Shown: piece after piece, positions 3,788 to 12,739 of the stretch
Layout of the letters: every line of letters begins with the position of its first letter
Position numbering within the stretch: position 1 is the first letter of the stretch
NCBI GenBank assembly: GCA_027533105.1
Contig: JAPZTW010000009.1
Location: 186,001 to 250,000 of the forward strand
Reading direction: 5' to 3'
Source of the DNA: Sphingomonadaceae bacterium
GTDB lineage: Bacteria; Pseudomonadota; Alphaproteobacteria; Sphingomonadales; Sphingomonadaceae
Length of the DNA stretch: 64,000 bases
Made by a program: the position numbers and the translations under genes
Notes under the pieces: model-generated
The model's input: only the letters and a program-made list of their open reading frames with translations
Told to the model about the DNA's origin: nothing
The model's database searches: none

Positions 3788-4390
3788 ATGGAACGTCGCC
3801 GCAGCATCGCCGTAGTCGATAGCAACTTTCGCCGCCGGGCCGCGATGAGCCACTCGCTGGCGGGCAGCGGGATCCATGTCGAACCCTTCGAGACAATCGA
3901 CGAACTGGCTGCCAGCTGGCCGCGGACCGAGGCCATCCTGGTCGAGGACCGGCACGAAACGATCGAGGAACTGATCGGGCTGATGACCGAGAAGGGGCGC
4001 TGGCTGCCGTTGATCGGCTTTGCCGAGGAGCCATCGATTGACCGGATCGTGCGGGCGGTCCTGGCCGGGGCGGTCGATTACCTGCACTGGCCGTGCCAGC
4101 CCGCGCAGGTGCTGGGCGCCCTGATCGGGGCCGAAAGCGCCGGGCAATCGCTGGGGATGCTCAAGCTGCGTGAGGCCCAGGCGCGCAGCCGCGTGCGGTG
4201 CCTGACCCGGCGCGAGCGCGAGGTGCTGGCCGGGATAGCCGAGGGCAAGTCCAACCGGCTGATCGGCGAGCAGCTAGAAATCAGCCCGCGCACGGTCGAG
4301 ATTCACCGCGCCAACATGCTGACCAAGATGGGGGCAAAGCACACGTCCGAGGCGATCCGGATCGCCATCGAGGCCTCGCTGGTGAGTTGA
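3788..4390 (+). CDS. LuxR/FixJ-type transcriptional regulator with receiver-like N-terminus
   Basis: C-terminal GerE HTH (LTRREREVLAGIAEGKSNRLIGEQLEISPRTVEIHRANMLTKMGA); N-terminal receiver-like fold IAVVDSNFRRRAAM...AILVEDRHE. Confidence 0.85.
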   Translation: MERRRSIAVVDSNFRRRAAMSHSLAGSGIHVEPFETIDELAASWPRTEAILVEDRHETIEELIGLMTEKGRWLPLIGFAEEPSIDRIVRAVLAGAVDYLHWPCQPAQVLGALIGAESAGQSLGMLKLREAQARSRVRCLTRREREVLAGIAEGKSNRLIGEQLEISPRTVEIHRANMLTKMGAKHTSEAIRIAIEASLVS

Positions 4391-4488: not shown

Positions 4489-7400
4489 TTAGAACTTGAT
4501 CCCGGCGGTGAGGCCGAAGCGACGCGGTTCGAGCGTGAAGATGTTGGTGTAGTTACCCGAGGACTGGTCGGTCACGTAGAGACCCGTGATCGCATCCTTG
4601 TCGAACAGGTTTTGCACCCAGACGCGGGCAAACCACTTCTTGTCGGGACCATCCAGCTGCAGCTGGGCATTGACCTGCGTGTAGCTGTCAATGCGGTTGA
4701 TGTTCCCGTTGAAGATGTTGCCGTAGGACTTGCCGGTGTAGATGAAGTCCGCACGCGGGGTCAGGGTCATGTCACCAACGGGGATGTCATACTGCACGCC
4801 CGCCGAGAACTTGTAGTCCGGCGCGCCGGGCAGCTTGTTGCCCTTGATGTTCACCGGGATACCCGACGAGTAGACGGTCACCCCGCCGAAGCCGGCCCCG
4901 ACGGTCGGTGCCAGCCCGGCCAGCGCCGCGCAGATGCTGAACGCGCCGGTCGAGTTGATGCCGCTGCCCGAGGGGAACGCGGTGGTCGGCTGCAGGTTGG
5001 CACCTGCGTTGCCGGTCACGGCACCCGAGTTGATCAGGGCGTTCACCTGGTTGACGAACCCGTTCACGCCGGTGGCGCTTCCGGTGTTCGAGGCCACGGC
5101 GCAGTTCGCACCGTTGGTGATGTCCTTGATGATCACGGCGTCGGCACGGCCCGCCCCGAAGTCACGCGGGTTGGAGAGGAACTTGTCCTCGCTCACCTTG
5201 GTGTTCAGGTAGCTGGCGTTCATGTTGATCGCCAGTTCGCGGGTGGGGCGGAAGATCGCTTCGGCTTCCAGACCCCAGACGTTGGCGCTGACGTTGTCGT
5301 TGACCGAGGTGCGGGCCACGATGCGCGACAGCTGCAGGTCGTTGTACTTGTAGTAGAACCCGGTGAGGTTCAGCTGGACATTGCCGAAGGTGTTCTTCGA
5401 ACCCACTTCGAAGGCCCAGACCGTTTCCGGACCAAAGCCTTCCGGAACCGCGAAGACCGGCGACAGCGGCGGGTTCACACCGCCCGACTTGTAGCCGCGC
5501 GAGACCGAGGCATAGACCAGGTTGTCCGGCGTGATCTGGTAATCCAGCACCGCACGACCCGTCCACTGGCTGAACTTCACGTTGCGGACCTGGAAGGGTT
5601 CGCAACCGCTGATGTTGGCCGAGGTCAGGATGCCCGAAGCGGTGGTGCTGTTGATCGTGCAGGCCGTGGCCGGATCGGCGTCATAGGGCTGAAGCCGCGA
5701 CGACGTCGGGGCACCGGTGACCGCCCAGCCGTAGAGATACGGCGAGGCGAACATGTCGGTCCCGCCGAACGGCACGAGGAAGTTGGCCAGGGTGGTGCGC
5801 GCCGTGATCGTCTTGTTGTCGTTGTTATAGCGCGCGCCGAGGGTCAGCTTCAGCTGGTCGTTGAACTTGAAGTAGGCTTCACCGAAGATCCCGTAGGTCT
5901 TGATGTCGAGCTGATCGCTGTTGTTGCGATAGAACGGCGTGCCAAGGAAGCCCGGCGGGGGCACCTGGGCACCCGGGATCGCCCCAACGCCAGCCCGGCC
6001 GAGCGCGTTGAAGGTGCCGAGCAGGCCGGTCAGGTAGTCGATGCCGAACGAGTTAACATAGTAGCTGTTCTCGCTCATCCCGCCCTTGCCGTAGATGCCG
6101 CCCAGCAGGAAGTTGAACATCCCGTCCCAGTCGGACGAGAGGATCATTTCCGCCGACCAGCTTTCGGTATCCTGGTTCGAACGGTCGAAGTCCTGCGGGG
6201 TCATCGAGCAGAGCCGCTGGCGGTTGGCACCATAGGCGCCCATTCCGCTCGGATCGGTGAGCGAGGTGCAGAGCACGCCGGTCGGTCCGTTCGGGATCAG
6301 GGCCGCCGCGATCGGCGCGAAGTAGGATGCCGGCAGACCCGGAATGCCGCCCGCAGCAGCAGCCGCGAGCGAGTTCAGGCCAGCCTGCATCCCGGCCCGG
6401 TTCTGGACCGAGTTGTTGTAGTCCTGCGACGAGTCGACCTTGGTCTGCTGCCAGTTGCCGCTGACCTTGACCTTCAGGCCATTGCCCAAATCCTGGTCGA
6501 TCGAGCCCTGAACAATCCATTCCTCGGCGAAATAGGTCGGCTTGTAGTCGGTGTTGACCACGCGCGGATCGGCCGGGTTGACGACACCGGCATAGGGATC
6601 CGGACCATAGAGGCTGCCCAGACCGAAGATGTTGGGAATGCCGTTGGCCGCGAGGAATTCACGCGAGGTGAGCACGCCCACGAACGAGGTGTTCGAGTTG
6701 GTCGTGCCATAGTCGCGCGTCGCATTGAGGCAGCCCAGCACGCCCGTGGGGTCGCGCTGGCACAGCTGCTTCTGGATGCGCATGCGGTTGTCTTTTTCGT
6801 GGAAGTACTGCGCCATCAGGTCGATGGTGGTCGACGTGCTGGGCTCGAACCGGATCGAGGCGCGCGCCCCCCACAGATCGCGGTCGTCGATCTTCGAATT
6901 GTCGAACAGGTTGGTCGTGTAGCCTTCGCGGTTCAGGTAGAAGCCGGCCAGGCGGACCGCCACGGTATCGCCGATCGGGGCATTGACCATGCCCTTCAGC
7001 TTGAAGCTGTTGTAATTGCCGTATTCGGCTTCGAAGTTGCCGGCCATGCCCGACAGGTCGGGCCGCGCGGTGCGGAAGTTGACCACGCCCGAGGTCGCGT
7101 TGCGGCCGAACAGGGTGCCCTGCGGACCACGCAGCACTTCGATCTGCGCCAGGTCATAGAACTCGCCTTCGAACAGGCGGGTCGCGTAGAGCGGCGCATC
7201 GTTCATGTGGATGGCGGTGGCGCTGTCGCAGGTCACGCCCACGCACAGGTCGCCGATGCCGCGGATCGTGAAGCTCGATCCGGTGAAGTTGCCCTTGGTA
7301 AAGGTGACGTTGGGCAGGGTGAGCTGCAGGTCGGAGGTGTTCTTGATCTGCTGCTTTTCGAGCGCTTCGGTGTTGAAGGCCGAAACGGCGATCGGCACGT

Positions 7401-7545
7401 CTTGCAGGCGCTGGTTCGAACGTTGCGCGGTCACGATGATGACGTTGGCGTCATCTTCCTCCGCCCCTTGTGCACTCTGTGCAAAGGCCGGAAACGCGAT
7501 TGCGCTGGCGCAGACGCCAGCAAGCAGGGTCAGCTTACCCCTCAT
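4489..7545 (-). CDS. TonB-dependent outer membrane receptor
   Basis: Signal peptide MRGKLTLLAGVCASAIAFPAFAQ, TonB-box-like NVIIVTAQRSNQRLQDVPIAVSAF, plug motif IEVLRGPQGTLFGRNATSGVVNF, C-terminal RRFGLTAGIKF. Start placed at CAT 7543-7545 instead of the ORF-track start. Confidence 0.95.
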   Translation of the reverse strand: MRGKLTLLAGVCASAIAFPAFAQSAQGAEEDDANVIIVTAQRSNQRLQDVPIAVSAFNTEALEKQQIKNTSDLQLTLPNVTFTKGNFTGSSFTIRGIGDLCVGVTCDSATAIHMNDAPLYATRLFEGEFYDLAQIEVLRGPQGTLFGRNATSGVVNFRTARPDLSGMAGNFEAEYGNYNSFKLKGMVNAPIGDTVAVRLAGFYLNREGYTTNLFDNSKIDDRDLWGARASIRFEPSTSTTIDLMAQYFHEKDNRMRIQKQLCQRDPTGVLGCLNATRDYGTTNSNTSFVGVLTSREFLAANGIPNIFGLGSLYGPDPYAGVVNPADPRVVNTDYKPTYFAEEWIVQGSIDQDLGNGLKVKVSGNWQQTKVDSSQDYNNSVQNRAGMQAGLNSLAAAAAGGIPGLPASYFAPIAAALIPNGPTGVLCTSLTDPSGMGAYGANRQRLCSMTPQDFDRSNQDTESWSAEMILSSDWDGMFNFLLGGIYGKGGMSENSYYVNSFGIDYLTGLLGTFNALGRAGVGAIPGAQVPPPGFLGTPFYRNNSDQLDIKTYGIFGEAYFKFNDQLKLTLGARYNNDNKTITARTTLANFLVPFGGTDMFASPYLYGWAVTGAPTSSRLQPYDADPATACTINSTTASGILTSANISGCEPFQVRNVKFSQWTGRAVLDYQITPDNLVYASVSRGYKSGGVNPPLSPVFAVPEGFGPETVWAFEVGSKNTFGNVQLNLTGFYYKYNDLQLSRIVARTSVNDNVSANVWGLEAEAIFRPTRELAINMNASYLNTKVSEDKFLSNPRDFGAGRADAVIIKDITNGANCAVASNTGSATGVNGFVNQVNALINSGAVTGNAGANLQPTTAFPSGSGINSTGAFSICAALAGLAPTVGAGFGGVTVYSSGIPVNIKGNKLPGAPDYKFSAGVQYDIPVGDMTLTPRADFIYTGKSYGNIFNGNINRIDSYTQVNAQLQLDGPDKKWFARVWVQNLFDKDAITGLYVTDQSSGNYTNIFTLEPRRFGLTAGIKF

Positions 7546-7775: not shown

Positions 7776-9470
7776 ATGCACCAGGCCGCCGCGCCGGACC
7801 AACCGACGCGCTATCGGGCATTCATCAGTTACAGCCATTCTGACAGCAGTTTTGCCCGGTGGCTGCACCGATCGCTCGAACGCTTCGTGCTGCCTGCCAC
7901 AGGCGAAGCGGCGCGCCAGCGGCTGGCCCCGGTGTTCATCGACCGCGCCGAACTGCCCGCCGCGACCGACCTATCCGCGACCGTGCGCGAGGCCCTGGCC
8001 GGATCCGCCGCGCTGATCGTGGTGGCGAGCCCCGGCGCGCGGGCCAGTGCCTGGGTCGATCGCGAGATCGCGCTGTTCCGCGAACTCCATCCCGATCGTC
8101 CGATCCTGACCGCGCTGATCGCGGGCGAACCGGACGAGGCCTTTCCCCCGGCCCTGACCGGCAGCGGGGCGACCCGGATCGAGCCCCTGGCCGCCGATTT
8201 CCGCAAGCAGGCCGATGGGCGGCGGCTGGGCCTGCTCAAGATCGTGGCCGGGCTGACCGGCCAGCCGCTCGACCGGCTGGTCCAGCGCGATAGCCAGGCC
8301 CGCCAGCGGCGCGTGATGGCCGTCACGGCGGCGGCCCTGCTGCTCAGTCTAGTGCTGGGCAGTCTGCTGGTGCTGGCAATCCAGGCTCGCGCCGAGGCAG
8401 AGCGGCAACGCGCCAGCGCGGAAGGAATGGTCGAATTCATGCTGACGGACCTGCGCGAAAAGCTGAAGGGCGTGGGCCGACTCGACGTAATGGATGCCGT
8501 CAACGCCCGGGCCATGGCGCATTACGCCGCCCAGCCGCTCGATGGCCTGCCGCCCGCCAGCCTGACGCGCCGCGCGCGGCTGCTCCACGCCATGGGCGAG
8601 GATGCCGCCAGCCGCGGCCAGATGGCCGAGGCCAGCGCCCTTTATGGCGAGGCCAGCCGCACCACTGCCGCCGTCCTGGCCCGCCAGCCCGACGATCCGG
8701 ACGCGATCTTCGCCCATGCCCAGAGCGAGTTCTGGGTCGGCTCGGCGGCCTGGGTGCAGCGCGACCTGCCGCGTACCGAACGGCACTGGCGCGCTTACCT
8801 CACGCATGCCGAAGCCCTTGCCCGGCGCGAGCCCGGCAGCCTGCGCGCGCTGATGGAACAGGGCTATGCCCAGGGCAACATGTGCGAACTGGTCAACCGC
8901 CAGACCGGGCGCCCCACCGAGGCATTGCCCTGGTGCGAGCGGTCCACGGCCTTCATGCGGCAGGCGGCGGCCCGCGCCGATGCGACCGCCCAGAACCGGC
9001 TGGACCTGGCCAACCGGATCGGCTGGCAGGCCGACGTGCTGGGCAAGGCCGGACGGATCGCGGCGGCCCTGGCGCTGCGGGCCGAGGAAGCCGCGATCAT
9101 CGCCCGGCTGCTGGCTGCCGATCCCGCCAATCGCGACCTGGCCGAGCGGCGGCTCTGGCCCGAAGTCGGCGCCGGACAGCTCGAACTGGCCGCCGGGCGG
9201 CCCGGGGCGGCGCTGGCGCGAATGCAGCGCTGCCTGTCGGACTATGCCCGGCTGGCGGCCGACCGGCCCGACGATCGCGGGCTGACCGTGCAGCAGTTCC
9301 GCGCCGCCTGGGTCGCCGCCCGCGCGGCCCGCGCGGCGCGGTCGGACCAGGCCCCGGCGCTGGTTCGCCAGGCCGAAGCATTCCATGCCCTGTTGCGCCG
9401 CTCCTATTCGTCAGCGGAGATGGCGCGGTTCGATACGATGCTGGCACAATTGCAAGAGGGAGACCGATGA
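7776..9470 (+). CDS. TIR domain - transmembrane segment - TPR-like protein
   Basis: TIR: RYRAFISYSHSDSSFARWLHRSLERF..FIDRAELPAATDLSATVREALAGSAALIVVASPGARASAWVDREIALF; TM VMAVTAAALLLSLVLGSLLVLAI followed by a coiled-coil and TPR-like helical region. Confidence 0.88.
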   Translation: MHQAAAPDQPTRYRAFISYSHSDSSFARWLHRSLERFVLPATGEAARQRLAPVFIDRAELPAATDLSATVREALAGSAALIVVASPGARASAWVDREIALFRELHPDRPILTALIAGEPDEAFPPALTGSGATRIEPLAADFRKQADGRRLGLLKIVAGLTGQPLDRLVQRDSQARQRRVMAVTAAALLLSLVLGSLLVLAIQARAEAERQRASAEGMVEFMLTDLREKLKGVGRLDVMDAVNARAMAHYAAQPLDGLPPASLTRRARLLHAMGEDAASRGQMAEASALYGEASRTTAAVLARQPDDPDAIFAHAQSEFWVGSAAWVQRDLPRTERHWRAYLTHAEALARREPGSLRALMEQGYAQGNMCELVNRQTGRPTEALPWCERSTAFMRQAAARADATAQNRLDLANRIGWQADVLGKAGRIAAALALRAEEAAIIARLLAADPANRDLAERRLWPEVGAGQLELAAGRPGAALARMQRCLSDYARLAADRPDDRGLTVQQFRAAWVAARAARAARSDQAPALVRQAEAFHALLRRSYSSAEMARFDTMLAQLQEGDR

Positions 9471-10306
9471 TGAGCGATTCCGGAACCGAAACCGGCCTGT
9501 CCCGGCGCAGCGCACTGACCGCCGCCGGTGTTGGCCTGATCCTGGCCGCCTGCGACAAGGCTGGCCCCGATGGGGACAAGAACGCGGCTAAGGCTCTTGG
9601 GACGGCTCTTGGCAGGCCAGAGCCTTATGGCTTTGACCCGCACTCGGCCGAGCAGGAAAAGACGGTGCGCGAGGCGCTCGGGCTGAGCGCGTTCAAGCCC
9701 GATTTCATCACCCTCGTGCGGGTCTATTCGGATGGTGCCTGGCAATTCGGGGCCAATCACGCGGCAATCGCGGCGGCGGCCGATCCGGTCGCCCAGGCCA
9801 TCGCGATCCTCGCCAAGACCGTCCGCCCCGGCAATGGTCGGCGCAAGTTCCGCGATTTCGGTCCGGATTCGAACGCCAATGACAAGGAAAACTTCCACAA
9901 GCGCGCCAAGGTCGAGCCGCTCGGCCAGGTCGATTTCGACGATTTCGAATCCTTCGGCTTCGGCAGCCGCCACGAGATCTTCGTGCATTACGATTCGCCT
10001 CGCGTGACCTTGCAGGAGGGGAACCTGATCTCGTTCTCGCCCTACCTCAATGACGGCAAGCCGGCTGCCCCCAATGACAGCTTCTTCGTTCGCACGGTTG
10101 ACACCGGGGGCCGGTTGAAGGGACCGCTGATCGCGATCCGCAATTACTTTGCCAAGGTGGACACGGGCGGCAAGATCCTGCCCCGCGATGCCGCGGTCGA
10201 CAAGGCCACGCTGGCGCTCAACCTGCACTTCACCCTGCCGGGCAAGCTGCCGATGCCGATGATCCTCGACCCCACCACGGGCAACGGGATGGGCGGCGAG
10301 CCCTGA
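9467..10306 (+). CDS. Predicted exported lipoprotein of unknown family in the TIR operon
   Basis: Starts in ATGATGA overlap with the TIR gene stop; N-terminus MMSDSGTETGLSRRSALTAAGVGLILAACDK contains a twin-arginine-like SRR and a lipobox-like LAAC; the rest is not assignable to a family by eye. Confidence 0.75.
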   Translation: MMSDSGTETGLSRRSALTAAGVGLILAACDKAGPDGDKNAAKALGTALGRPEPYGFDPHSAEQEKTVREALGLSAFKPDFITLVRVYSDGAWQFGANHAAIAAAADPVAQAIAILAKTVRPGNGRRKFRDFGPDSNANDKENFHKRAKVEPLGQVDFDDFESFGFGSRHEIFVHYDSPRVTLQEGNLISFSPYLNDGKPAAPNDSFFVRTVDTGGRLKGPLIAIRNYFAKVDTGGKILPRDAAVDKATLALNLHFTLPGKLPMPMILDPTTGNGMGGEP

Positions 10307-10308
10307 CC

Positions 10309-11910
10309 GTGCCGCTGGCCGCATCGCTGCCGGTAATCGCCGCACTGGCCCGGTCTGGGGCGGTGCGGCGCGCGTGGGAACTGTTCGAGGCGGGCGGCTG
10401 GGCCGCGCGGACCGACGATCCCGCCGCGCTTTCGCTCATGGGCCGCCTGCTGAAGGACCGGGCACGGGCGGCCGCAGGTGCCGGGGAGCGGGCCGCGCTG
10501 TTCGGTGCCGCCGCCAGTGCCTATGCCGCCGCCCATGCCCTCGCCCCGGCACCCTACCGCGCGATCAACGCCGCCACGGCGCGGCTGCTGGCGGGCGATC
10601 CGGCGGGCGCCGCGCAGGGCGCACAAGCCGTGCTCGACCTGCTCGATGCCCCCACGCCGCCGGCCGATACGCCCTATTTCCTGGCCGCGACCCGGGCCGA
10701 AGCCCTGCTCCTGCTGGGCCAGCCGGATGCGGCCGGGGCTGCCATGCGCCTGGCGGTAGCCGCCGATCCGGACGGCTGGGAAGACCGCGCCGTGACCCTC
10801 GCCCAATTGCGCGAAATCTGCGTCGCGCTGGGCCAGGACTCGACCTGGCTGCACCCGTTCGTCCCGCCCACCAGCCTGCATTTCGCCGGACACATGGGCA
10901 TCGCCAGCGGCGGCGCGAGCGAGACAGCGCTGGTCGCCGCCATCGATGGCCTGCTGGCGCGCACTTACGTCGGCTTCGCCTGGGGGGCGCTGGCCGCCGG
11001 AACGGACATCGTGATTGCCGAACGCCTGTTCGCCGCCGGGGTCGAACTCCACGCCGTCCTCCCCTGCCCGCCCGAGGCCTTCGCCATGCAATCGGTCAGC
11101 CCGGCCGGGGCGGTCTGGCTGGCGCGCTATCACGCCGTGCTGGCACGCGTGGCATCGGTGCGGGTCGCGGGCTCCAGCCCGGCCGGGGTCCACGATCCGC
11201 TGGCCACGGCCCATGCCGGCCTGCTGGCGATCGGTGCGGCGCGGCTCAACGCCCGGCGGCTCGGCAGCTGCGCGGTGCAGCTGCTGATCGAGGACGAGGC
11301 GGGCGGCGGGCCCAATACCGCGCGCCAGGCCGCGCTCTGGTCCGCCGGAGCCGGGCCGCAGGAGCGGGTCCGGATCACGCGCGATGCCGCGGTGGAGCAA
11401 CTGTTCCCGCCCGAAGCGCCCGATCCCGCGCGGCGGCTGGTCTTGCATCTGGCCGTCCTGCTCGACCTCCCACGGGAGATCGCCGCTTCCACAGATCTTG
11501 CGCCCCTGCTCGATCCCGTTGCCTTGGCCATCGCCGCGGCGGATGTGCCGCCAGCGGCGGTCCGCGCCGGGCCCGGGCGCTGGGACATCACGCTTGAGGA
11601 TCAGGACCTGGCACTGGCCCTCGCCCGCCGCCTGACCGGGCTGACCGCACCGCGTCCGGCAATCGGCCTGCACCTCGCGATCGGACCGGTGCTGGTCGAT
11701 CCGGCCAGCGGCGCGCTGGTCGGCTATGGCGCCGAGGCCGGTCTGGCCGGCACCCTGGCCGCGATGGCCCCGGCGGGGACGGCGCTGGCTTCCGACGCGC
11801 TAGCTGTCGCGCTGGCCGCTGGCGGGGCGTCGACCGCCCGGACCGAATGCTATCATCCCGGCGAGGCCGAGACCGGCGGCGCGGTGCACCTGTTGCTGTT
11901 CGATCAGTAG
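10309..11910 (+). CDS. TPR-like protein with SLOG-type domain and degenerate class III cyclase-like C-terminus
   Basis: GTG start 2 nt after the previous stop. SLOG-like: LHFAGHMGIASGG..AAIDGLLARTYVGFAWGALAAGTDIVIAERLFAAGVELHAVLPCPPEAF. Cyclase-like: AIGLHLAIGPVLVDPASGALVGYGAEAGLAGTLAAMAPAGTALASDAL. Confidence 0.7.
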   Translation: MPLAASLPVIAALARSGAVRRAWELFEAGGWAARTDDPAALSLMGRLLKDRARAAAGAGERAALFGAAASAYAAAHALAPAPYRAINAATARLLAGDPAGAAQGAQAVLDLLDAPTPPADTPYFLAATRAEALLLLGQPDAAGAAMRLAVAADPDGWEDRAVTLAQLREICVALGQDSTWLHPFVPPTSLHFAGHMGIASGGASETALVAAIDGLLARTYVGFAWGALAAGTDIVIAERLFAAGVELHAVLPCPPEAFAMQSVSPAGAVWLARYHAVLARVASVRVAGSSPAGVHDPLATAHAGLLAIGAARLNARRLGSCAVQLLIEDEAGGGPNTARQAALWSAGAGPQERVRITRDAAVEQLFPPEAPDPARRLVLHLAVLLDLPREIAASTDLAPLLDPVALAIAAADVPPAAVRAGPGRWDITLEDQDLALALARRLTGLTAPRPAIGLHLAIGPVLVDPASGALVGYGAEAGLAGTLAAMAPAGTALASDALAVALAAGGASTARTECYHPGEAETGGAVHLLLFDQ

Positions 11911-12602
11911 ATCAGCTCGTCCAGCCGGTGCGGGGCGATCACCGCCAGCCCGCCATCGCCGCGCCGCAGGATCCCGCGCCGCTCCAGCTGCGAGACGGTG
12001 CGCGACACGGTCTCGCGGGTCGACTGGACCCGCTGGGCCAGTTCGGCCAGCACCGGCATCGGGCGGATCACCCCGTCATCGGCGCCAGCGGCAAGGCGGC
12101 GCAATTCGGCACAGATCCGGCCCGTCGCGCTGAGCAGCGAGGTTTCGACCATGCGCTGGCGCATCGCCGCCAGCCGGGTGCCCAGCTGGCGGGTGACCGC
12201 CACCGCCACGCAGGCATAGCTTTCCATCAGCCGCAGCACCGCCTCGCCCCCGTAATGCAGCGCGCGGCCATCGCGCAGCGCCTCGACCTGGGCGGGGCCC
12301 GCCCCGTCGCCCAGCCCGACGAGGCTGCCATAGAACTCACCCGGACCGACCAGATGCAGCACCAGCACCGCGCCATCCCGGCCATAGGCCACCTCGTGCG
12401 CCTGCCCGGCGGTCAGCAGCGAAGTCTCATCCCGGCCCGGCAGCGGATAAAGCAACTGCGCCCGGGCAAATTCGCTCCCGCGCCCCAGCGCCGCAATGGT
12501 CCGCGCCAGCCCCTCGCCACACCCGAAGGCCCGCGCGATCACCGCCAGTTCGCCGCTCTCGCCCTGCACCCGTCGCCCCCTCGCAACCCCACGTACACGC
12601 AC
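11904..12602 (-). CDS. Crp/Fnr family transcriptional regulator
   Basis: Cyclic-nucleotide-binding-like fold followed by the HTH VLAELAQRVQSTRETVSRTVSQLERRGILRRGDGGLAVI. GTG at 12602 (or 12569) is preferred because the ORF-track start lies inside the tRNA. Overlaps the upstream convergent CDS by 7 bp. Confidence 0.82.
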   Translation of the reverse strand: MRVRGVARGRRVQGESGELAVIARAFGCGEGLARTIAALGRGSEFARAQLLYPLPGRDETSLLTAGQAHEVAYGRDGAVLVLHLVGPGEFYGSLVGLGDGAGPAQVEALRDGRALHYGGEAVLRLMESYACVAVAVTRQLGTRLAAMRQRMVETSLLSATGRICAELRRLAAGADDGVIRPMPVLAELAQRVQSTRETVSRTVSQLERRGILRRGDGGLAVIAPHRLDELIY

Positions 12603-12630: not shown

Positions 12631-12655
12631 GCAAGCCAGGTTATCAGGAAAATGG

Positions 12656-12739
12656 TGCCCAGAAGAGGACTCGAACCTCCACGCCGTTTCCAGCGCCGCC
12701 ACCTGAAGACGGTGCGTCTACCAATTCCGCCATCTGGGC
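12656..12739 (-). tRNA. tRNA-Leu (anticodon CAG)
   Basis: Minus strand GCCCAGATGGCGGAATTGGTAGACGCACCGTCTTCAGGTGGCGGCGCTGGAAACGGCGTGGAGGTTCGAGTCCTCTTCTGGGCA: long variable arm, TTCGAGTCC T-loop, 7-bp acceptor stem. Confidence 0.95.

What the first reader, a model, noticed from the sequence alone, without database searches (positions are those of the whole stretch)
7776..11910. TIR + lipoprotein + SLOG/pseudo-cyclase operon: candidate uncharacterised NAD-derived nucleotide signalling or defence system
Seen: three genes in tight succession (ATGATGA overlap at 9467-9470; GTG start 2 nt after the stop at 10306). Gene 1 is TIR-TM-TPR. Gene 2 is a predicted exported lipoprotein with no recognisable family. 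Gene 3 has a SLOG-type Rossmann segment (FAGHMG..GALAAGTDIVIAERLFAAGVELHAVLP). Known: in Thoeris, TIR protein ThsB makes a cyclic ADPR isomer that is sensed by the SLOG domain of ThsA. SLOG and TIR domains recur in nucleotide-centric conflict systems. Inference: this operon reuses the TIR-to-SLOG logic, with an envelope component and no SIR2 effector, so it could be an envelope-stress or phage-triggered NAD signalling system. It could also be a housekeeping signalling module, since TIR-TM-TPR proteins are not rare in sphingomonads.
Basis: partly seen in the sequence, partly recalled or inferred. Interest (0 to 1): 0.82.

Follow-up and report, generated by a model that had tools for sequence, protein, structure and literature searches.

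The report
Four-gene TIR–pseudocyclase–Crp signalling module
Next to a membrane-anchored TIR enzyme, this bacterium carries a fast-changing small gene, a nucleotide-sensor protein built on a dead adenylyl cyclase, and a back-to-back Crp/Fnr regulator; this set recurs in many related bacteria and looks like an untested NAD-based signalling or anti-invader switch.

Summary
The operon is real: TIR-TM-TPR (7776-9470), gene 2 (9467-10306) and gene 3 (10309-11910). It recurs in Sphingomonadales and Caulobacterales. Gene 3 is TPR-S + DprA/YpsA-like SLOG + class III cyclase fold (AF2 pLDDT 95). Its cyclase residues are lost. This loss maps to one fully supported split in the family tree (144/145 tips), on the side where Crp linkage is usual (100 of 110 pseudo-cyclases, 0 of 17 intact cyclases). 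Gene 2 is a cryptic, hypervariable relative of Pfam pNTSase1 ('predicted novel nucleotide synthetase'). Its export/lipobox signal is unique to this genome among 92 homologues, so 'lipoprotein' is not a property of the system. The TIR catalytic Glu is invariant. There is no defence-island enrichment and no SIR2, so it is not Thoeris. Best reading: a threshold-type NAD-derived nucleotide signalling module of the TPR-S class, with transcriptional output. Whether it fights phage is open. New variant of a known, computationally predicted kind.

The parts
7776..9470 (+). Gene 1: TIR-TM-TPR protein, 564 aa; TIR domain aa 16-132, single TM aa 184-202, TPR-like C-terminal part; catalytic-type Glu97
   Evidence: Pfam TIR_2/ThsB_TIR; S18, Y19, D56, S91, W93, E97 invariant in 34/34
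7821..8171 (+). TIR domain (aa 16-132)
8325..8381 (+). Transmembrane segment (aa 184-202)
   Evidence: Kyte-Doolittle 2.52
9467..10306 (+). Gene 2: hypervariable middle protein, divergent pNTSase1-like (279 aa from the first ATG)
   Evidence: position, C-terminal DP..N motif, homology chain
9500..9553 (+). Lineage-specific Tat/lipobox-like segment SRRSALTAAGVGLILAAC in gene 2
   Evidence: in an insertion absent from L102, L103, L118; only N-terminal hydrophobic stretch among 92 middle proteins
10268..10273 (+). Invariant Asp268-Pro269 of the middle-protein family
10309..11910 (+). Gene 3: TPR-S + SLOG + pseudo-cyclase, 533 aa
   Evidence: Pfam TPR-S; AF2 pLDDT 94.9
10327..10860 (+). TPR-S helical repeat region of gene 3 (aa 7-184)
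10864..11379 (+). SLOG (DprA/YpsA-like Rossmann) domain of gene 3 (aa 186-357)
   Evidence: Foldseek: phage DprA-like TMt 0.79, YpsA-related SLOG TMt 0.52-0.54; invariant residues at the ends of beta 1-3
11419..11901 (+). Class III cyclase homology domain of gene 3, catalytic residues lost (aa 371-531)
   Evidence: PDB profile hits 3mr7, Ma1120; Foldseek 1ybt TMt 0.70; residue tally
11904..12569 (-). Fourth component: convergent Crp/Fnr-family regulator (GTG start 12569 or 12542; the longer ORF to 12749 runs through the tRNA)
   Evidence: HTH_Crp_2 3.5e-10, cNMP_binding 26.6 bits against cut-off 27.5; adjacent to gene 3 in 73/80 loci; starts and stop

Best explanation
A four-gene signalling module of the TPR-S class. 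SHOWN: conserved gene set (TIR-TM-TPR, hypervariable pNTSase1-like protein, TPR-S/SLOG/pseudo-cyclase, convergent Crp/Fnr), TIR catalytic residue, SLOG fold, loss of cyclase catalytic residues, similar divergence patterns of TIR, gene 3 and Crp. INFERRED: the membrane-anchored TIR cleaves NAD(P)+ to an ADP-ribose-type messenger when triggered. Gene 2, the fast-evolving part, supplies trigger recognition or tunes TIR (it may itself make or modify a nucleotide). The messenger is read by the SLOG and TPR-S parts of gene 3, whose dead cyclase domain serves as a dimerising or allosteric platform. The output goes at least partly through the Crp/Fnr regulator, giving a thresholded stress or anti-invader response.
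For: TIR-middle-gene 3 order in about 60 of 80 named loci; Crp adjacent in 73/80. All 10 pNTSase1 matches in 201 family genomes lie between the TIR and gene 3. TIR/gene 3/Crp identity matrices correlate (rho 0.68-0.72), while gene 2 is far more divergent: mean identity 0.20 against 0.41-0.45. E97 invariant in 34/34. SLOG and cyclase folds from a pLDDT 94.9 model; SLOG invariant residues sit at the C-terminal ends of beta 1-3, the usual nucleotide-binding edge. Cyclase motifs intact in 17 gene 3s with 0 adjacent Crp; lost in 110, of which 100 have adjacent Crp; one bipartition with support 1.0 separates the two states. The metazoan ASK signalosome components are traced to bacterial conflict systems (PMC8195603); 31/59 gene 3 relatives match the ASK-type MAP3K TRAFs-binding model.
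Against: No ligand, NADase activity or phenotype was tested. Neighbours are metabolic genes, 1 of 42 with a PADLOC hit. Upstream TonB-receptor synteny in 13 loci argues for vertical inheritance rather than a mobile defence gene. Crp could be a neighbour with its own job; no clear conserved Crp/FNR box was found upstream of the TIR. The gene 2 fold is unresolved (pLDDT 43), and its tie to pNTSase1 rests on a chain whose last link is marginal (L064: 24.6 bits against a 25-bit cut-off; 25.7 bits with neighbouring stretches). The distance correlations do not separate shared vertical descent from functional coupling.
Confidence: 0.5

Rival explanations
1. Abortive anti-phage system: TIR is the killing effector (NAD+ depletion at the membrane), gene 2 the hypervariable phage sensor, gene 3 a messenger-gated regulator, Crp only sets expression.
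For: Hypervariable gene between conserved ones; patchy presence, 76/301 family genomes; TIR remnant in G257/L042; TIR matches ThsB_TIR and the PADLOC SAVED-TIR model.
Confidence: 0.3
2. Housekeeping envelope or metabolic stress signalling: the TPR part of gene 1, inferred to be periplasmic, senses envelope state and the TIR/SLOG/Crp chain adjusts transcription, unrelated to phage.
For: Crp/Fnr output; chromosomal, vertical setting beside TonB receptors and metabolic genes; no match in phages and one in plasmids.
Against: Absent from most family genomes; fast evolution of gene 2 is unusual for housekeeping; TIR and pNTSase1/TPR-S parts are otherwise linked to conflict systems (recalled literature).
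Confidence: 0.3
3. Gene 2 is a genuine nucleotide synthetase that makes the messenger, and the TIR is the effector gated by gene 3.
For: Pfam name pNTSase1, best 5.2e-26 in relatives; exclusive linkage to the operon.
Against: Only Asp-Pro is invariant across 42 members, little for a catalytic site; lengths and sequences vary greatly; the window copy carries an export-like signal, which would remove it from NTPs.
Confidence: 0.15
4. Chance neighbours without a common function.
For: Gene 2 itself has no pairwise hit in 300 relatives.
Against: Conserved order and distance-matrix correlation in many genera and two orders.
Confidence: 0.01

Closest known systems
TPR-S / pNTSase1 predicted NAD-signalling conflict systems (Pfam PF20308, PF20301; Burroughs & Aravind 2020, paper not held, recalled)
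   Same: TPR-S sensor, TIR enzyme and pNTSase1-like protein in one operon
   Different: Here with a SLOG domain plus a dead cyclase domain and a convergent Crp/Fnr gene; gene 2 too divergent for the Pfam model. I could not check whether the 2020 paper shows this exact arrangement
Thoeris (ThsB TIR + ThsA SIR2-SLOG)
   Same: TIR and SLOG in one operon; possible NAD-derived messenger
   Different: No SIR2 effector; TIR is membrane-anchored with TPRs; extra gene 2, pseudo-cyclase and Crp
Class III adenylyl/guanylyl cyclases (Rv1900c CHD 1ybt, Ma1120)
   Same: Fold of the gene 3 C-terminus
   Different: Both metal-binding Asp and the Asn/Arg transition-state pair absent in the window protein; metal motifs absent in 90/91 TIR-linked relatives
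DprA/YpsA-type SLOG proteins
   Same: Fold and glycine-rich phosphate-loop region
   Different: Embedded between TPR-S and CHD; no DNA-processing context
Crp/Fnr regulators
   Same: HTH_Crp_2 and a borderline cNMP_binding domain
   Different: Fixed convergent, often tail-overlapping position beside a pseudo-cyclase

Membership tests
Thoeris | TIR protein (ThsB) | tested here: met
   ThsB_TIR 33.1 bits against cut-off 21.2
Thoeris | ThsA with an effector domain (SIR2) fused to SLOG | tested here: not met
   No SIR2 in gene 3; no PADLOC Thoeris hit; NCBIfam ThcB4 22.8 bits against 220
Thoeris | Anti-phage activity through a cADPR isomer | not testable with these tools
   needs biochemistry and phage assays
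TPR-S signalling class | TPR-S domain | tested here: met
   33.7 bits against cut-off 27.6; 58/59 relatives
TPR-S signalling class | Linked enzyme making an NAD-derived signal (TIR/SLOG/DrHyd) | tested here: met
   adjacent TIR with invariant Glu97; activity itself untested
pNTSase1 | Match to PF20301 over cut-off | tested here: inconclusive
   window gene 2: no hit; 27/42 middle proteins hit at E<=0.1; linked via L102/L103 and L064; hhalign 61% over the C-terminal 30 residues
SLOG superfamily | SLOG Rossmann fold with phosphate-loop region | tested here: met
   Foldseek DprA-like TMt 0.79; conserved G194, G226-G231, D233, E238, P252 at strand ends
Class III nucleotidyl cyclase | Two metal Asp and Asn/Arg | tested here: not met
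   A382, P422, A477, G481 at these profile positions in the window; 90/91 TIR-upstream gene 3s lack the metal motifs
Bacterial lipoprotein (gene 2) | N-terminal signal with lipobox Cys | tested here: inconclusive
   sequence fits (LAAC, aa 26-29), but unique among 92 homologues; no dedicated signal-peptide predictor on hand
Defence-island gene | Enriched next to known defence genes | tested here: not met
   1 of 42 nearest neighbours hits PADLOC

The most novel reading that the evidence does not exclude
A one-time signal swap: a TPR-S/SLOG adenylyl cyclase lost catalysis once, at the branch where a Crp/Fnr regulator became its fixed convergent partner, and its clade then repeatedly paired with a TIR and a hypervariable gene 2. 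An NAD-derived nucleotide would thus reach a Crp-family transcription factor through a pseudo-cyclase receptor, a route not described for TIR systems as far as I know.
Probability: 0.3. Interest if true: 0.8.

Novelty: new variant of a known kind. Interest (0 to 1): 0.58.

Why it matters
It turns a loose prediction (TPR-S proteins read NAD-derived signals) into a compact, genetically tractable four-gene module, found in Caulobacter relatives and many sphingomonads, where messenger, receptor and transcriptional output can each be tested. It also gives a natural experiment: apparently active cyclases on one side of a single tree split, pseudo-cyclases with Crp on the other.

Tried and rejected
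Pairwise searches with gene 2 found nothing and suggested an orphan; synteny showed otherwise. AF2 of gene 2 failed (pLDDT 43), so no fold is claimed. Small-database iterative profiles recruited 77 of 92 middle proteins, but against 11,404 ORFs the iteration stopped at 5, so only the chain via L064 is used; 6 reversed-query hits below 1e-3 also warn against the loose version. The single-linkage grouping of middle proteins is not used as proof for the same reason. tRNA-Leu as an integration site: not conserved. Crp/FNR box upstream of the TIR: not above shuffles for the FNR-type box; CRP-type 10/59 with 2 mismatches against about 6% in shuffles, not pursued. The enriched 7-mers there may belong to the divergent TonB promoter. 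Positive-inside rule for TIR topology: not informative (16/34). Plasmids and phages: one and no match for gene 3. The key 2020 paper is not held; literature searches found no description of this gene set.
Full report
Check of the observation. The three ORFs, the ATGATGA overlap and the GTG two bases after the gene 2 stop are as described. Third-position G+C is high in all three genes (0.82-0.85). Gene 1 matches TIR_2 and ThsB_TIR over cut-off, gene 3 matches TPR-S over cut-off, gene 2 matches nothing directly.

Conservation. In 301 genomes of the family, gene 3 occurs in 76 and gene 1 in 82, while gene 2 by pairwise search is found only in the window's genome. Coordinates show that TIR and gene 3 are usually separated by 500-950 nt. 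That gap holds a reading frame of 145-300 aa in nearly all same-strand TIR-first loci. A scan of GTDB genomes gave 80 named loci (Novosphingobium, Sphingomonas, Croceicoccus, Caulobacter, Asticcacaulis, Brevundimonas and others); 61 carry a TIR match directly upstream of gene 3, one of them (L106) only a remnant. The class-wide search finds gene 3 in 23 of 377 genomes, mostly with intact cyclase motifs.

Gene 2. The middle proteins share a C-terminal motif (hFNhhh...IDPDxxNPP); only Asp-Pro is invariant in 42 members. Twenty-seven of 42 match Pfam PF20301 pNTSase1, 'predicted novel nucleotide synthetase' (E up to 0.1, best 5.2e-26), and all ten pNTSase1 matches in 201 family genomes lie exactly between TIR and gene 3. 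The window protein is about 48% identical to those of L102, L103 and L118. These match L064 (E about 1e-10; window 5e-7), which matches pNTSase1 marginally (24.6 bits against 25; 25.7 with neighbouring stretches). hhalign of the window group against the core group gives 61% over the last 30 residues. So gene 2 is best called a divergent pNTSase1-like protein, with moderate confidence. Its SRRSALTAAGVGLILAAC segment lies in an N-terminal extension that the three closest relatives lack, and it is the only N-terminal hydrophobic stretch among 92 middle proteins. The envelope component is therefore a peculiarity of this genome, if functional at all. The AF2 model of gene 2 is unusable (pLDDT 43).

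Gene 3. AF2 gives pLDDT 94.9. Foldseek against viral models finds phage DprA-like (TMt 0.79) and YpsA-related SLOG proteins; against the PDB it finds class III cyclases such as 1ybt (TMt 0.70) and TPR proteins. Profile search independently finds cyclases at 371-507. SLOG invariant residues (G194, G226-G231, D233, P252) sit at the ends of strands 1-3, where SLOG domains bind nucleotides (established knowledge of the fold). The cyclase metal Asp and Asn/Arg positions are A, P, A, G in the window. Thirty-one of 59 relatives match the MAP3K TRAFs-binding model of ASK kinases, consistent with the statement that ASK signalosome components originate in bacterial conflict systems (PMC8195603).

The missed fourth gene. 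A Crp/Fnr gene (HTH_Crp_2 3.5e-10) converges on gene 3 and overlaps it by 7 nt in the window. It is adjacent in 73 of 80 loci: 56 of 61 with a TIR match upstream and 17 of 19 without. Of 17 gene 3s with intact cyclase motifs none has an adjacent Crp, against 100 of 110 without them; 90 of 91 with an upstream TIR are pseudo-cyclases. On a tree of the TPR-S and SLOG region only, one bipartition with support 1.0 separates intact from lost cyclase in 144 of 145 tips; TIR linkage changes about nine times. These classes use simple motif patterns, Crp was sought with one query only, and the tree is midpoint-rooted, so the direction of change (active to dead) is inferred.

Joint inheritance. In 49 complete four-gene loci mean pairwise identity is 0.45 (TIR), 0.41 (gene 3), 0.41 (Crp) but 0.20 (gene 2). 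Identity matrices correlate at 0.68-0.72 among TIR, gene 3 and Crp, and at 0.28-0.43 with gene 2; 0 of 500 permutations reached any of these. Common descent alone could produce such correlations. Gene 2 is the diversifying part.

Mechanism. The TIR keeps its catalytic Glu in 34 of 34, so NAD(P)+ cleavage is likely. A single TM segment in the window protein places the TPR part opposite the TIR, probably in the periplasm (inference; the charge rule was uninformative). SLOG and TPR-S are the likely readers of the product. With cyclase activity gone and a Crp/Fnr gene in fixed position, a transcriptional output is the simplest reading, but contact between gene 3 and Crp is not shown.

Defence or housekeeping. 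For defence: patchy presence, hypervariable gene 2, TIR decay in L042/G257, domain company. Against: metabolic neighbours, 1 of 42 with a PADLOC hit, TonB-receptor synteny in 13 loci, absence from phages and near absence from plasmids. I leave this open.

Novelty. TPR-S and pNTSase1 are named Pfam families whose source (Burroughs & Aravind 2020, recalled, not held) predicts NAD-signal sensing, so the kind is known. The pseudo-cyclase/Crp arrangement, its single origin and the cryptic gene 2 appear new, with the caveat that the source paper could not be read.

Noticed in passing
window 11904-12569 (-): Convergent Crp/Fnr regulator conserved beside gene 3; outside the given coordinates and taken into the finding.
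   Followed up: yes
window 4489-7545 (-): TonB-dependent receptor divergent from the operon; homologues sit upstream in 13 related loci, with a LuxR-type gene (3788-4390 in the window) beyond in 6.
   Followed up: partly
window 12653-12739 (-): tRNA-Leu(CAG) next to the Crp gene, also in L118 (9314-9400) but not generally; the longest Crp ORF reads through it, so automated starts may be wrong.
   Followed up: yes
L042:6882-7109 (same locus as L106): TIR gene reduced to a 75-aa remnant and gene 2 missing while gene 3 and Crp persist.
   Followed up: partly
L124, L128, L132 (Croceicoccus): Different order: gene 3, convergent Crp, then a longer TIR-TPR protein followed by a roughly 136-aa protein with a gene-2-like 'NKWEFAS' segment.
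   Followed up: partly
L126, L127, L131, L132, L148, L162, L179: Gene 3 without an upstream TIR is preceded by a small exported protein (looks UrcA-like by eye; the one tested had no Pfam hit).
   Followed up: no
L111, L120, L147, L164, L165, L174: Alternative gene 2 type ending in GG(I/P)H(P/W) in the same operon position; may be an exchangeable cassette.
   Followed up: partly
L174:2984-3868 (-): CD-NTase-like gene (CBASS type by motif; the single PADLOC hit among neighbours) next to the operon.
   Followed up: no
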